Source: an uncultured bacterium (lineage in GTDB: Bacteria; Methylomirabilota; Methylomirabilia; Rokubacteriales; CSP1-6). Taken from it: a stretch of DNA of 14,957 bases. Under the pieces are notes generated by a model. That model was not told the origin of the DNA. It made no database searches and saw nothing but the letters and a program-made list of their open reading frames with translations. Positions 10,399-14,957 of the stretch are shown here, in pieces. How positions within the stretch are numbered: the stretch's first letter is position 1; every line of letters begins with the position of its first letter. The stretch is taken from positions 1 to 14,957 of the forward strand of contig CAMLFJ010000016.1 of NCBI GenBank assembly GCA_946479205.1. The letters are read 5' to 3'. The position numbers were made by a program, and so were the translations under genes.

Positions 10399-10428
10399 TT
10401 GAAAGAACAGCGCTCGGTATCCTATGCT
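10399..10428 (+). promoter_or_regulatory. Sigma70-type promoter of mlaA
   Basis: TTGAAA (10399-10404, five of six) and TATGCT (10423-10428, four of six) are separated by 18 bp. Transcription would start near 10435, about 90 nt before the chosen GTG. The open frame of mlaA runs back into this -10 box, which argues against the upstream ATG at 10424 as the real start. Confidence 0.5.
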
Positions 10429-10525
10429 CGCGGATGGCCCGCCGTGGCACTGGCTTTGCTCCCCAGGGAGCGGGCCTGCCGACCGCGGCAACAAGCTCAG
10501 CCAGAACTCGAGGGGGACACGGAAC

Positions 10526-11533
10526 GTGCGTTTCGGATTCGGGATGCGACAGGCAGCGCTGCTGGTGGCGATCTCGGCCCTTGCCCTGGGCGGCTGTGGC
10601 ACGCTGTCCGGCGGGCTGCACAGCGAGTCGCTGACCGCCGCGACCGCGGGCTCCACCGACCCGGACAATCCGATCGCCGCGGCTCTCGCGCCCGAGCGGC
10701 AGCCGACCGGCGCGGTGGTCGAGCCTCACGCGGGTGAGCAGGCCATGGCCGCGACGGTGGCCTTCCGGCCCGCCTCCTTCGAGCTGATCCGGCCCGGATC
10801 GCAGCCCTCCTACATGGTCGCCTCGGTGGGGCCGCTCGTGGTCGCCCAGGCGCCCGCGTGGATGCTGGCCCAGGCGCGCGCCGCCGATCCGGTCGTGCCC
10901 TCCGAGGGCGTCCTCGAGGAGTACGACCCGTGGGAGCCGTTCAACGAGAAGATGTTCTCGTTCAACTACAAGCTCGACAAGTACGTGCTCAAGCCGGTGG
11001 CGAAGGGCTACAACTTCGTGATGCCGGACCGCCTGCAGCAGATGATCGACAGCGGCTTCGACAACCTGCTGGTGGTCCAGCGCGTCGTCAACAACCTGCT
11101 CCAGGGGCGCCCGCTGGGCGCGACCGCGGAGGTCGGCCGCTTCCTGATCAACAGCACGGTCGGCATCGGCGGCCTCTTCGACATCGCCAAGCAGGAGTTC
11201 AACCTGCAGAAGACCCGCGCCGACTTCGGCCAGACCCTCGGCATCTGGGGCATCGGGCCCGGGCCCTTCCTGGTCCTGCCGCTCATGCCGCCACTCACGG
11301 TGCGCGACGGCATCGGCACCGCGGTGGACGGGGCGATGGATCCCCTGAGCTACGTGCTGCCCTTCATCTGGACGCGACTCGGCATGAAGGTCGGCAACAT
11401 GATCAACGACCGGTCGCTCAACCTGGATCTCTACCAGGGCTTCGAGGAGACCACGGTCGATCTCTACAGCGCGGTGCGGAACGGCTATCTCCAGCGCCGC
11501 GAGAACATGATCAAGAGCCCGTCGCCGTACTGA
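10526..11533 (+). CDS. mlaA: MlaA/VacJ-family outer-membrane lipoprotein
   Basis: A 335-residue lipoprotein of the MlaA/VacJ family. Family members sit in the outer membrane and draw mislocalised phospholipids from its outer leaflet, passing them to the MlaC/MlaFEDB retrograde route. The N-terminus has a basic n-region, a hydrophobic stretch and a lipobox (A-L-G-G-C), giving lipidated C24. The MlaA domain spans about residues 132-325: D-P-W-E-P-F-N-E-K-M-F at 134-144, then F-N-Y-K-L-D and V-V-N-N-L-L-Q-G-R-P, F-L-I-N-S-T-V-G-I-G-G, a Gly-Pro-rich hydrophobic segment, and D-P-L-S-Y. Between C24 and the domain lies an extra stretch of about 105 residues rich in Ala, Pro and Gly, not usual for the family. 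The GTG at 10526 has GAGGGG 10 bases upstream; ATG 10544 is the alternative and keeps the lipobox. No other mla gene is adjacent. Confidence 0.9.
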   Translation: MRFGFGMRQAALLVAISALALGGCGTLSGGLHSESLTAATAGSTDPDNPIAAALAPERQPTGAVVEPHAGEQAMAATVAFRPASFELIRPGSQPSYMVASVGPLVVAQAPAWMLAQARAADPVVPSEGVLEEYDPWEPFNEKMFSFNYKLDKYVLKPVAKGYNFVMPDRLQQMIDSGFDNLLVVQRVVNNLLQGRPLGATAEVGRFLINSTVGIGGLFDIAKQEFNLQKTRADFGQTLGIWGIGPGPFLVLPLMPPLTVRDGIGTAVDGAMDPLSYVLPFIWTRLGMKVGNMINDRSLNLDLYQGFEETTVDLYSAVRNGYLQRRENMIKSPSPY

Positions 11534-11827: not shown

Positions 11828-14800
11828 ATGAGAGTCGCCCGGCGGTTCACCAGAGAAGGCCAGAGCCCGTACGCGGGGATCCAGTTCGATCAGCGAGTGT
11901 CGGAGATCAAGAACCCCGACGGCTCCACGGTCTTCCGCCAGGACGGAATCTCGGTGCCGGCCGGATGGTCCGGGGTGGCCACGGACATCCTCGCCCAGAA
12001 GTACTTCCGGAAGTCCGGGGTGCCGCAGTACGCGCCGGACGGCAAGCCGCTGCTGGATCGGGACGGCCGGCCGGTCCTGGGCGGTGAGCGGGACGCCCGC
12101 CAGGTCTTCCACCGGCTCGCCGGCTGCTGGATGCACTGGGGAGAGAAGTACGGCTACTTCGACACCCCCTCCGACGCCCGGGCCTTCTACGACGAGCTCT
12201 GCCACATGCTGGCGGCCCAGGTCGCGGCCCCGAACTCGCCGCAGTGGTTCAACACCGGCCTGCACTACGCCTACGGGCTCTCCGGCCCGGCCCAGGGCCA
12301 CCACTACGTCGATCCGGACACCGGCGTCCTCACCCGCGCCAGCTCCGCCTACGAGCGGCCGCAGCCGCACGCCTGCCAGCCCTTTCACGCCCTGATCTCC
12401 ACGCCCGAGGGACCCATCCCGATCGGGCAGATCGTGACCAAGAACCAGGTCGGCCTCGAGGTCTACGACGGGCGCGACGAGGGCGTCGGCACCACGCGGG
12501 TGGTGGCGGTCAGGGAGAACGGCGAGAAGGCGGTCTTCCGCATCGAGCTCCGCAACGGCGTGGCGGTCGAGGCCACCGGCGACCACCTGGTGTACGCGAT
12601 CGCCAACGGCGTCGGCGCCTGGCGCCGGGTCGACGAGGTGGAGCCGGGCGCGGCGCTTCGCCTGTCCACGCGGACGGACGTGCGCCGGGACTCGTACCAC
12701 ACCGAGGTGGACGAGGCGGCGCTGGTCGGCTGGCTGCAGGCCGACGGCTTCGTGGGCCAGGACGGCCTCAGCACCGACCATAGCCTCGCCGTCGAGTTCA
12801 CCACCATCGACAAGGACGAGCTCGACTTCATCGTCGAGCGGGTGCACCGCGTGTTCGACGGGGTGCACTACCACGTCCGCTCCATGGAGACGCGTACCCC
12901 GGGGCTCGACATCCACCGGATCCGCCTCTACGGCGAGCCGCTGCGGCCCTTCGTGGACAAGTACGGCCTGCTCCGCTCGAGCGCCGACCACGCGGTGCCG
13001 GCCATGATCCAGCGGGCCGGCCGCGACGCCCAGGCCGCCTACCTGCGCGCGCTCTTCCAGGCCCAGGGCACGGTGCGGCTGCGCTCGTACTGGGCCCGCC
13101 AGGCCGACGTCGCGCTCTCCACCATCTCGGCCGGGCTGGCGCACGGGGTGCAGGCCCTCCTGCTCAACATGGGCATCTACGCGAAGCTGGGGCGCGGCGC
13201 CGAGACCCGGGAGACCCGCCGCACGCCCTACGTCGTCTCGATCGTCCACGCGGAATCGCGGGCGCGCTTCCGGGACCTGATCGGCTTCATCTCCGACGAC
13301 AAGCGCCAGAAGCTCGACACCGCCTGCTCCGACCAGTTCGCGGGCAAGAAGCTGCCCGCGCTGCGGGACGAGACGGTGGTGCGGGTGGAGTGCGTCGGCG
13401 TGCAGCCGGTGTTCGACATCCAGACCGAGAGCGGACAGTACCTGTCCAACAACGTCATCGTCCACAACTGCTTCATCCAGTCCGTCACCGACGACCTGGT
13501 CAACGACGGCGGCATCATGGACCTCTGGACCCGCGAGGCCCGCATCTTCAAGTACGGCTCGGGCAGCGGGACCAACTTCTCCAATCTGCGCGGGGCGAAC
13601 GAGCCGCTCTCGGGCGGCGGCAAGTCCTCCGGCCTGATGTCGTTCCTGCGGATCGGCGACCGCGCGGCGGGCGCCATCAAGTCGGGCGGGACGACCCGGC
13701 GGGCCGCCAAGATGGTGATCCTCAACCTCGACCACCCGGACATCCTCACCTTCATCCGGTGGAAGGTGGTGGAGGAGCAGAAGGTGGCGGCGCTGGTCAG
13801 CGGCTCGCGCATGACCAAGCGGCGCCTCCAGGCGGTGCTGTCCGCGGTGCGCACCCCCGCCGGCGTCGAGGTCGATCCGCGCCAGAATCCGGCGCTGCGC
13901 TCCGCGGTGCGCGAGGCGCGCGCGGCCCTCGTACCCGAAGGCTACATCCAGCGCGTGCTGCTCCTGGCCGGCCAGGGCGTGCGCGAGATCCACTTCCCGG
14001 AGTACGACACCGACTGGGACAGCGAGGCCTACTACACGGTCTCCGGCCAGAACTCCAACAACAGCGTGCGCGTGCCCAACGCCTTCTTCGACGTGCTCGC
14101 GCGCCGCGGCCAGTGGGAGCTCAAGCGCCGCACCGACGGCAAGAGCGCGGGCGCGGTGCCCGCCGAGCAGCTCTGGGACGAGATCGCGCACGCGGCCTGG
14201 GCCTGCGCCGACCCCGGGGTGCAGTACGACACCACGATCAACGAGTGGCACACCTGCCCCGAGGACGGGCGGATCAACGCGAGCAACCCGTGCGTGACCG
14301 GCGAGACCCTGGTGGCCACCGCGGACGGCTGGCAGCGGATCGATGCGCTGGTCGGCAAGACCGCGCGCGTCATCGGCTCGGACGGCGAGCCCCACCTGGT
14401 GACCCGCATCTTCCCCACCGGCCACAAGCCGGTCTTCGATCTCCGGACGCGCCTCGGCTACCAGGTGCGGATCACCGGCGATCACAAGGTCCTCACGGTG
14501 GGCCGCGGCGACGTCGCGGTGGCCGACCTCACGGTGGGCAACCGCCTCACCCTCCGCGGCGCGGGCTTCGGCCGGCGCCGCCTCGCCACCGACCTGGCCC
14601 TGGGCGTCGGGGTGGCGGTGGCGGAGGGCTACCTGACGCAGTCGGTGGTCCGCGGTCACGCGCAGGAATCCCTCGTGCTCACCACCGACGCGGGCGAGTC
14701 TCCGATCCTGGCCGCGGTCGCCGACGCGGTGCACGCCGGGCGCGCCGCGCTCCAGGCGGTGGGCGGGCTCGGCCGCCAGGCGGGCAGCGGGGTGATCACC

Positions 14801-14957
14801 CGGACCGCGGCCACCGCGCGGCTCATGCTGAGCGAGGCCGCCGCGGTGGCGGTGTTCCGCGAGTTCGCGATCCTGGACGAGGGCGCCGCGTCCATCCGCT
14901 TCGCCCCCGCGATCTTCGAGCTGGACCGGGCGACCCTGGCCGCGGTGCTCCGCGGCC
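11828..14957 (+). CDS. nrdJ: Class II (B12-dependent) ribonucleotide reductase, two inteins, 3' incomplete
   Basis: This frame is open for 1043 codons to the window edge. It encodes an adenosylcobalamin-dependent ribonucleoside reductase, which makes deoxyribonucleotides without needing O2. After removal of the two inteins the visible host protein is 456 residues: 1-182 and 548-821. Host motifs are S-P-Q-W-F-N-T-G-L at 137-145, P-H-A-C joined to C-F-I-Q-S-V-T-D-D-L, E-A-R-I-F-K-Y-G-S-G-S-G-T-N-F-S, D-H-P-D-I-L-T-F-I-R-W-K, N-N-S-V-R-V-P-N, and D-T-T-I-N-E-W-H-T-C-P just before the second insertion. There is no N-terminal ATP-cone. The ATG is fixed by a perfect AGGAGG (11817-11822) with a 5-nt spacer. 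The expected continuation S-E-Y and the rest of the barrel lie beyond the window. Activity depends on splicing of both inteins, because each interrupts the chain at an essential cysteine. Confidence 0.95.
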   Translation, partial: MRVARRFTREGQSPYAGIQFDQRVSEIKNPDGSTVFRQDGISVPAGWSGVATDILAQKYFRKSGVPQYAPDGKPLLDRDGRPVLGGERDARQVFHRLAGCWMHWGEKYGYFDTPSDARAFYDELCHMLAAQVAAPNSPQWFNTGLHYAYGLSGPAQGHHYVDPDTGVLTRASSAYERPQPHACQPFHALISTPEGPIPIGQIVTKNQVGLEVYDGRDEGVGTTRVVAVRENGEKAVFRIELRNGVAVEATGDHLVYAIANGVGAWRRVDEVEPGAALRLSTRTDVRRDSYHTEVDEAALVGWLQADGFVGQDGLSTDHSLAVEFTTIDKDELDFIVERVHRVFDGVHYHVRSMETRTPGLDIHRIRLYGEPLRPFVDKYGLLRSSADHAVPAMIQRAGRDAQAAYLRALFQAQGTVRLRSYWARQADVALSTISAGLAHGVQALLLNMGIYAKLGRGAETRETRRTPYVVSIVHAESRARFRDLIGFISDDKRQKLDTACSDQFAGKKLPALRDETVVRVECVGVQPVFDIQTESGQYLSNNVIVHNCFIQSVTDDLVNDGGIMDLWTREARIFKYGSGSGTNFSNLRGANEPLSGGGKSSGLMSFLRIGDRAAGAIKSGGTTRRAAKMVILNLDHPDILTFIRWKVVEEQKVAALVSGSRMTKRRLQAVLSAVRTPAGVEVDPRQNPALRSAVREARAALVPEGYIQRVLLLAGQGVREIHFPEYDTDWDSEAYYTVSGQNSNNSVRVPNAFFDVLARRGQWELKRRTDGKSAGAVPAEQLWDEIAHAAWACADPGVQYDTTINEWHTCPEDGRINASNPCVTGETLVATADGWQRIDALVGKTARVIGSDGEPHLVTRIFPTGHKPVFDLRTRLGYQVRITGDHKVLTVGRGDVAVADLTVGNRLTLRGAGFGRRRLATDLALGVGVAVAEGYLTQSVVRGHAQESLVLTTDAGESPILAAVADAVHAGRAALQAVGGLGRQAGSGVITRTAATARLMLSEAAAVAVFREFAILDEGAASIRFAPAIFELDRATLAAVLRG
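12374..13468 (+). other. NrdJ intein 1 (365 aa) with LAGLIDADG endonuclease domain
   Basis: An in-frame protein intron between P-H-A and C-F-I-Q-S of NrdJ. Splicing parts are complete: nucleophile C1 (NrdJ residue 183) with block A C-Q-P-F-H-A-L-I-S-T-P-E-G, block B T-G-D-H with T68 and H71, block F V-G-V-Q-P-V-F-D-I-Q-T, and a terminal V-I-V-H-N followed by Cys +1. Between them sits a homing-endonuclease region. Motif 1 is L-V-G-W-L-Q-A-D-G (intein 117-125) and motif 2 is L-R-A-L-F-Q-A-Q-G (224-232). In motif 2 the catalytic Asp is replaced by Gln (Q231), so DNA cleavage is probably lost while splicing should be intact. Removal joins A182 to C548. Confidence 0.93.
14291..14957 (+). other. 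NrdJ intein 2, N-terminal part, cut by window end
   Basis: This begins at the Cys after N-A-S-N-P, where an uninterrupted NrdJ would read N-P-C-S-E. Block A is C-V-T-G-E-T-L-V-A-T-A-D-G-W (NrdJ residue 822 is C1). Block B is I-T-G-D-H with T62 and H65. A LAGLIDADG-like motif 1 follows as L-G-V-G-V-A-V-A-E-G-Y-L (intein about 104-115), with Glu (E112) in the catalytic acid position. At least 222 residues are visible. Blocks F and G, motif 2 and the downstream junction lie outside the window. Its sequence is clearly different from intein 1. Confidence 0.88.

What the first reader, a model, noticed from the sequence alone, without database searches (positions are those of the whole stretch)
12374..14957. 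One reductase gene carries inteins at both essential cysteines
The two inteins sit exactly before the Cys of CFIQS (matching the redox-active Cys, C225 in E. coli NrdA) and at the Cys of NPCSE (matching the radical-forming Cys, C439 in E. coli NrdA). Unspliced or half-spliced protein cannot be active, so deoxyribonucleotide supply hangs on two splicing events that both use cysteine chemistry. This could make the enzyme sensitive to redox state or zinc, a possible post-translational control. Inteins in ribonucleotide reductases are known; a control role is speculation.
Basis: partly seen in the sequence, partly recalled or inferred. Interest (0 to 1): 0.7.

Follow-up and report, generated by a model that had tools for sequence, protein, structure and literature searches.

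The report
Two inteins at reductase's catalytic cysteines
A bacterium's gene for the enzyme that makes DNA building blocks is interrupted twice, each time exactly in front of a cysteine the enzyme needs for catalysis, by self-removing protein inserts; this is real, recurs in relatives, and looks like ordinary selfish inserts rather than a shown control switch.

Summary
The open frame 11828-14957 (+) is a class II (B12-dependent) ribonucleotide reductase, NrdJ. Intein 1 (12374-13468, 365 aa) stands exactly before the redox-active cysteine (CFIQS). Intein 2 begins at 14291, exactly before the thiyl-radical cysteine (NP|C), and runs off the window; relatives supply the missing end (...VVHN|CSEY).

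It is a known kind. The SP-beta phage NrdE intein sits at the same radical-cysteine site, and multi-intein reductases are published. In a collected set (306 relatives plus the window) a third intein site lies at the third catalytic cysteine (DDTA|C); 16 of the 264 sequences with all three sites called carry inteins at all three.

In 84 long-NrdJ genomes from two phyla, 6 had site 1 without site 2, 6 site 2 without site 1, none both: gain and loss of mobile elements, not a fixed control device. Both endonucleases here have an altered catalytic acid, yet intein 1's endonuclease domain stays conserved.

Redox or zinc control is chemically possible but unsupported. One oddity: intein 2 follows proline (176 of 177 sequences), a residue reported as incompatible with splicing.

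The parts
11828..12373 (+). N-extein of NrdJ (182 aa, ...YERPQPHA)
   Evidence: Pfam Ribonuc_red_2_N 1.8e-38; aligns to 7b9p from residue 1 to the HAC before its Cys199
12374..13468 (+). Intein 1, 365 aa, C1...HN, full-length (Hint domain + LAGLIDADG endonuclease), at the redox-active Cys
12743..12745 (+). Intein 1 endonuclease motif C catalytic Asp (LQADGF), kept
   Evidence: 91 of 91 sequences with a letter in this column have Asp, window included
13064..13066 (+). Intein 1 endonuclease motif E: Gln (CAG) where 41 of 92 sequences keep Asp (FQAQG versus FQADG)
   Evidence: codon read
13469..14290 (+). Middle extein (274 aa), starts with the redox-active Cys of CFIQS, ends ...INASNP
   Evidence: 81% identical match in L001, which has both sites empty
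14291..14957 (+). Intein 2, N-terminal 222 aa (runs off the window), C1 after Pro(-1), at the thiyl-radical Cys
   Evidence: window residues 822-908 match the NpuDnaB intein 4o1r at 1.4e-7
14624..14626 (+). Intein 2 endonuclease motif C: Glu (GAG) where 90 of 120 sequences keep Asp (VAEGYL versus VGDGCL)
   Evidence: codon read

Best explanation
Two ordinary class 1 (Cys-type) inteins of the homing kind occupy two standing intein sites in a class II ribonucleotide reductase, in front of the redox-active and the radical cysteine. After translation each intein makes an N-S acyl shift at its Cys1, the host's own catalytic cysteine (+1) attacks, Asn cyclises and the exteins join, giving a normal NrdJ. 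The inteins got there by homing and stay because codons of catalytic cysteines can only be cleared by exact deletion. In this lineage both endonucleases carry an altered catalytic acid, so the elements are probably now inherited mainly with the gene; the endonuclease domain of intein 1 is kept because the fold matters for splicing or still has some activity. Shown: location, splice residues, occupancy pattern, motif changes, conservation. Inferred: that splicing occurs, that homing has slowed or stopped, why the domain is kept.
For: Exact empty-site alignment. C1/HN/+1 Cys at site 1 in 92 of 92; C1 in 169 of 169 and HN in 168 of 169 complete site-2 inteins. Model fold of intein 1. Independent occupancy of the sites. 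Intein 1 motif change only in the window's clade: Gln in 46 of 92 (80.7-100% identical to the window), Asp in 41 (47-68%). Host and intein distances correlate in 29 double proteins (Mantel r 0.93 and 0.87, p 0.001), and synonymous divergence window versus G076 is alike for intein 1 (0.46) and exteins (0.35, 0.46). Retention at conserved sites is the argument of PMC2814812 (abstract and passages).
Against: Splicing is not demonstrated for this protein. Intein 2 has Pro at -1, stated to block the first step (PMC13123727, passages). The endonuclease domain of intein 1 is not decaying (HEN/Hint distance slope 0.81, 95% 0.76-0.87, for the strict Gln clade; 0.97, 0.85-1.06, for all with a changed residue; 0.97, 0.92-1.01, for the Asp clade). 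For intein 2 the change is not clean: Asp also occurs in sequences up to 96% identical to the window's part (P0047, P0125), and Asp to Glu may leave an active enzyme. Signs of exchange remain: P0001 against P0129 and P0140 has intein 1 distance 0.02 but intein 2 0.15-0.18, and in Nitrospirota pairs L169/L170 and L169/L168 intein 1 has higher synonymous divergence than the exteins. Only one DNA pair of the window's clade was available for dN/dS, without error bars.
Confidence: 0.82

Rival explanations
1. Post-translational control: thiol oxidation (C1 to C+1 disulfide) or zinc stops splicing at one or both sites, holding back deoxyribonucleotide synthesis under stress.
For: Both inteins have Cys1 and Cys+1, the kind of pair whose disulfide blocks the P. 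abyssi PolII intein (PMC5874633, passage; PMC4031507, passage). M. smegmatis DnaB has two inteins, one of which is stopped by oxidation (PMC6195587, abstract and passages); zinc inhibition of DnaB splicing is in the title of PMC7360933 (search listing). Intein 1 has an internal Cys318 (84 of 92). The Aquifex NrdB intein improves iron loading (PMC8772380, passages).
Against: No cysteine in intein 2 besides C1 in the window part or in P0001. The +1 cysteines are host catalytic residues, so their presence is no evidence of selection for control. Occupancy is sporadic and the double state was absent from 84 surveyed long-NrdJ genomes. Cys340 of intein 1 is in only 47 of 92.
Confidence: 0.1
2. Intein 2 is a dying element: Pro(-1) and the altered endonuclease make it splice poorly, and a second reductase carries the cell.
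For: -1 Pro; shorter clade (mostly 360-363 aa versus 371) and faster endonuclease-domain change in the Glu clade (slope 1.49, 95% 1.34-1.67, versus 1.22, 1.15-1.30); a second class II reductase in the four relatives opened.
Against: -1 Pro is near-universal at this site (176 of 177) while C1 is kept in 169 of 169 and HN in 168 of 169 complete inteins, and the second reductase has the same NP|C junction. NrdJ exteins are under strong purifying selection (omega 0.09 and 0.11, one pair).
Confidence: 0.06
3. Assembly artefact or frameshifted pseudogene.
For: Two relatives (P0002, P0054) have frameshifted stretches inside intein 2.
Against: The window frame is open throughout; 30 of 188 sequences typed show both sites filled, as separate protein clusters.
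Confidence: 0.02

Closest known systems
SP-beta phage BnrdE intein (Bacillus phage SPBc2, NC_001884)
   Same: Same place: the radical cysteine (KFSNL|CVTGETLLL...VTGN|CSEV), same intein start CVTGET
   Different: Class I reductase, -1 Leu not Pro, Gly-Asn not His-Asn at the end, 385 aa; 22% identical to intein 1 in tblastn; not compared with intein 2 by score
NrdJ-1 split intein (marine metagenome)
   Different: Native exteins NPC and SEI, so it sits one residue further on, after the radical Cys, with Ser+1 (PMC13123727, passages); split. One relative here, P0286, has that register too (NPC|CITGD...IHN|SEYM)
RIR1 intein alleles (rir1-b, -g, -k, -l, -m)
   Same: Inteins in reductase genes, several per gene (uncultured Chloroflexi BAL53207.1 is listed under three alleles; PMC4071816, passages)
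   Different: Which letter corresponds to sites 1-3 here could not be established from the passages seen
M. smegmatis DnaB, two inteins
   Same: Two inteins in one essential protein, differing in behaviour (PMC6195587, abstract and passages)
   Different: Helicase; oxidation response shown there by experiment, not here
Aquifex aeolicus NrdB intein
   Same: Intein splitting catalytic residues of a reductase (PMC8772380, passages)
   Different: Small subunit, metal site; a benefit (iron loading) was measured

Membership tests
Class II NrdJ (PRK07562-like) | B12-type N-terminal domain and barrel domain with redox and radical cysteines | tested here: met
   PF08471 1.8e-38, PF02867 6.6e-44, both above cut-off; NF005736 1.3e-225 but below its whole-protein cut-off, as expected for a gene cut by the window; 7b9p 1e-182
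Class 1 intein, intein 1 | Cys/Ser at 1, block B TxxH, penultimate His, final Asn, +1 Cys/Ser/Thr | tested here: met
   C1, T68..H71, H364, N365, Cys+1
Class 1 intein, intein 1 | Hint fold | tested here: met
Class 1 intein, intein 2 | Cys1 and block B TxxH | tested here: met
   C1, T62..H65 in the window; Thr62 and His65 in 120 of 120
Class 1 intein, intein 2 | Final His-Asn and +1 nucleophile | tested here: inconclusive
   outside the window; HN|CSEY in P0001 and HN in 168 of 169 complete site-2 inteins
Homing intein, intein 1 | LAGLIDADG endonuclease with both catalytic acids | tested here: not met
   second acid is Gln; activity not tested
Homing intein, intein 2 | LAGLIDADG endonuclease with both catalytic acids | tested here: inconclusive
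   first position is Glu, still an acid; the second motif lies outside the window
Inteins with conditional splicing | splicing rate changes with redox state, zinc or other signal | not testable with these tools
   needs expression; only the C1/C+1 pair is present by sequence

The most novel reading that the evidence does not exclude
Class II reductases have their three catalytic cysteines (redox pair and radical) doubling as the +1 nucleophiles of up to three inteins, so active-site completion is gated by thiol chemistry; a conserved Pro(-1) at the radical-cysteine junction acts as a built-in brake, and endonuclease-altered inteins are kept because this staged maturation helps the enzyme.
Probability: 0.08. 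Interest if true: 0.75.

Novelty: new member of a known kind. Interest (0 to 1): 0.4.

Why it matters
It gives a clean case in which host catalytic cysteines serve as splicing nucleophiles, with empty, single, double and triple natural versions of the same enzyme for comparison. The natural Pro(-1) junction at the radical cysteine goes against a stated rule of intein chemistry and can be tested directly; an intein that splices well after proline would also be a useful tool.

Tried and rejected
Phage origin: tblastn of intein 1 in 50,697 phage records gave 23 records, all under 60% identity, and a viral-contig scan, which with a single protein reaches close relatives only, gave none. Control by zinc or a dedicated cysteine pair: no supporting pattern in the cysteine columns. 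Simple decay of the intein-1 endonuclease domain: not seen, its conservation relative to the splicing domain is not lowered. HSP-chaining count of insertion sites undercounted adjacent sites 2 and 3 and was set aside. The site tally was checked and corrected: P0199, P0276 and P0299 had been called filled at site 2 because their host reads CAEY, and P0286 has its insertion one residue later; 17 triples became 16, and 180 of 181 with -1 Pro became 176 of 177. A survey of a third phylum (G002's, named Planctomycetota) failed twice. Whether the site-1 allele has a published letter could not be found (searches; held open-licence library only; one search found no paper with at least three of its four terms). 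I make no claim that the three-site pattern is unpublished.

Counting limits: the 307 sequences are the window plus 306 distinct proteins, the best 120 listed from each of three searches (of 7999, 620 and 1181 matches, candidates capped); they were chosen by likeness to intein-bearing queries, so shares in them are not prevalences. 264 of 307 had all three sites called; 43 with any undetermined site were dropped from combination counts. TxxH (169 of 169 at site 2, 113 of 113 at site 3) is a loose pattern, [TS]xxH anywhere in residues 51-110. In one search, 81 of 245 genomes matched; I long-NrdJ by score (G102, G112, G121, G130 match only at about 1e-75 to 1e-82). Emptiness of 70 of the 77 rests on hit coordinates and open-frame length (at most 1247 aa), not on reading each; G144 (frame of 827 aa) and G295 (two hits) are the least certain. 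The list of matches was cut. In one search, G001 and G064 are called empty from adjacent hit coordinates; only up to 4 or 2 first-look candidates per genome were scored. One search leaves out rows shorter than 340 aa in both groups; one search leaves out the window (truncated) and P0102 (mini-intein). The four genomes opened for a second reductase were picked because they had a second hit; G066, G095 and G097 were not opened for it.
Full report
WHAT IS THERE. The window's last gene, open from 11828 to its end at 14957 on the + strand, is a B12-dependent (class II) ribonucleotide reductase, NrdJ. Against the intein-free Rhodobacter enzyme 7b9p the host sequence aligns as residues 1-183 and 546 onward, the two blocks meeting at one cysteine (PQPHAC / CFIQS), and the second block runs to SNPC. 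Between the blocks lie 365 codons (12374-13468) that start with Cys and end His-Asn, followed by the Cys of CFIQS: intein 1. A second insertion starts at 14291 (INASNP|CVTGETLVATADGW) and is cut by the window's end. P0001, 89% identical over the whole query, completes it: 361 aa ending VVHN, then CSEYMFLDDTACNLAS. No genome is held for the window; several of the nearest relatives are named Rokubacteria or Methylomirabilota, so the host is probably of that group.

WHICH CYSTEINES. In the phmmer alignments the CFIQS cysteine falls on position 134 of Thermotoga maritima NrdJ (1xje) and, by coordinates, 218 of human RRM1 (3hnc); the NPC cysteine on 322 of 1xje, and the cysteine of DDTAC on 333 of 1xje, 11 residues later. 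That 134/333 are the redox pair and 322 the thiyl-radical cysteine, and that these are C225/C462 and C439 in E. coli NrdA, is recalled. In each case the host's catalytic cysteine is also the +1 nucleophile of splicing.

HOW THE SITES ARE USED ELSEWHERE. In the first two protein searches, 188 sequences (window included) were typed by host anchors: 30 have both sites filled, 52 site 1 only, 55 site 2 only, 1 neither, 50 have an undetermined site (P0102's site-2 intein is a 132-aa mini-intein). A Nitrospirota genome, G243, has three inteins in its NrdJ: site 2, a new site at DDTA|C, and one at MNC|FAIA. A search with the DDTA|C intein brought the set to 307. Of the 264 with all three catalytic sites called (43 dropped), 16 carry inteins at all three, 34 at sites 1 and 2, 38 at 2 and 3, 18 at 1 and 3, 74 at 2 only, 53 at 1 only, 30 at 3 only, 1 at none (which corrects). 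P0189, labelled Candidatus Nitrospira bockiana on a 4.46-Mb contig, has exactly the three; P0197 (3228 aa) has five, the others at AIK|SGGTTRRA and APTG|TIGL. These sets were collected by likeness to inteins and are not prevalences.

A less biased view comes from whole genomes searched with a double-intein protein. Phylum of G001 (Rokubacteria): 95 genomes, 7 with a long NrdJ; site 1 only in G076, site 2 only in G065, G066, G095, G097, neither in G001 and G064, both in none. Intein 1 itself had one close relative in the 95 genomes (83% identity in G076); 56 of 95 had some match, the others at most 38% identical. Nitrospirota: 245 genomes drawn, 77 with a long NrdJ; site 1 in 5, site 2 in 2, both in none. 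Together 84 genomes: 6, 6, 0. The double state of the window is therefore uncommon, and the two sites fill and empty separately; about 0.4 doubles would be expected by chance, so the zero is not evidence of avoidance.

MOBILITY. Intein 1 keeps Asp124 in endonuclease motif C but has Gln231 in motif E (FQAQG). Of 92 sequences, 46 have Gln (all 80.7-100% identical to the window's intein), 41 Asp (47-68%), 5 Asn, Lys or Arg. Intein 2 has Glu112 in motif C (27 of 120 Glu, 75.7-100% identical to the window; 90 Asp, some up to 96.4% identical, such as P0047 and P0125); motif E is outside the window and in P0001 reads TADAT for TADGT. Loss of one acid is expected to cripple a LAGLIDADG enzyme (PhoVMA, which lacks its acids, is described as inactive: PMC8966425, passages), but Glu can be a natural catalytic residue (a PDB title speaks of an E178D change at the catalytic site of I-OnuI), so intein 2's state is open. 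Inheritance with the gene is supported: synonymous divergence between the window and G076 is 0.46 for intein 1 and 0.35 and 0.46 for the exteins (one pair, Nei-Gojobori), and among 29 double proteins host and intein distances correlate (r 0.93 and 0.87, Mantel p 0.001). Against pure vertical descent: P0001 against P0129 and P0140 has intein 1 distance 0.02 but intein 2 0.15-0.18, and in the Nitrospirota pairs L169/L170 and L169/L168 intein 1 has higher synonymous divergence than the exteins, near or at saturation. Against plain decay, the intein-1 endonuclease domain has omega 0.21 (splicing halves 0.34 and 0.19, exteins 0.09 and 0.11), and its distances are not raised relative to the splicing domain (slope 0.81 in the strict Gln clade, 0.97 in all with a changed residue, 0.97 in the Asp clade). 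In the Glu clade of intein 2 they are raised (1.49 versus 1.22). A splicing role of the endonuclease domain has a precedent cited in PMC10643990 (passage: the Haloferax volcanii polB intein).

THE PROLINE. Intein 2 follows Pro in 176 of 177 site-2 sequences (one Ser, P0023). A 2026 study of NrdJ-1 states that -1 Pro disrupts the first splicing step and is well known to be incompatible (PMC13123727, passages). Since splice residues at this site are kept and the host is under strong selection, this family very likely splices a Pro-Cys bond; how fast is unknown. Site 1 and site 3 have Ala at -1 (92 of 92; 114 of 114). The SP-beta intein at the same site has Leu.

OTHER REDUCTASES. Four relatives with a second hit (G001, G064, G065, G076) were opened: all four hold a second class II reductase (NF006417 and NrdJ_Z above cut-off) with an insertion of about 410 aa at the same junction, NP|C...HQ|CGEQ, ending Gln. 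So in G065 and G076 both class II reductases are interrupted; in G001 and G064 only the second is. The other three long-NrdJ genomes and other reductase classes were not examined for this.

CONTROL? Precedents are real: disulfides of splice-site cysteines (PMC5874633 and PMC4031507, passages), two DnaB inteins with one redox-sensitive (PMC6195587, abstract and passages), an Aquifex reductase intein that aids iron loading (PMC8772380, passages). Nothing in this sequence or its relatives singles out control over simple persistence at sites that cannot be deleted imprecisely (PMC2814812, abstract and passages). Multi-intein reductases are in print: phage nrdA with two putative inteins (PMC3653736, passages), several rir1 alleles listed for one protein (PMC4071816, passages); about 80 reductase inteins had been curated by 2009 (PMC2795772, passages).

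VERDICT. Confirmed observation, known kind. The parts a specialist would look at twice are the recurrence at all three catalytic cysteines and the near-universal Pro(-1) at the radical cysteine.

Noticed in passing
L160 (G243) protein residues 844-1210 and 1736-2028: A Nitrospirota NrdJ has, besides the radical-cysteine intein, inteins at the third catalytic cysteine (DDTA|C) and at a C-terminal MNC|FAIA site.
   Followed up: partly
P0197 (3228 aa), P0189 (2279 aa): NrdJ with five inteins, three of them at the three catalytic cysteines; NrdJ of Candidatus Nitrospira bockiana with exactly those three.
   Followed up: partly
L172-L175: Second class II reductase in four relatives with an insertion at NP|C ending His-Gln instead of His-Asn.
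   Followed up: partly
P0286: Insertion after, not before, the radical cysteine (NPC|CITGD...IHN|SEYM), the register of the NrdJ-1 split intein.
   Followed up: no
P0102: A 132-aa mini-intein at the radical-cysteine site, also after Pro; possible small tool intein.
   Followed up: no
P0023: Intein 1 of this sequence lacks the block B Thr and His (AASCR) and has Ser at -1 of intein 2; splicing-defective copy or sequence error.
   Followed up: no
window 13757-13957: NrdJ middle extein has a weak Pfam match to the TACO1/YebC N-terminal domain (8.3e-5, 23 bits, below the cut-off of 36); PF20772 is also listed for several relatives.
   Followed up: no
window 10424-11533: MlaA-like phospholipid-binding lipoprotein gene just upstream of nrdJ.
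   Followed up: no
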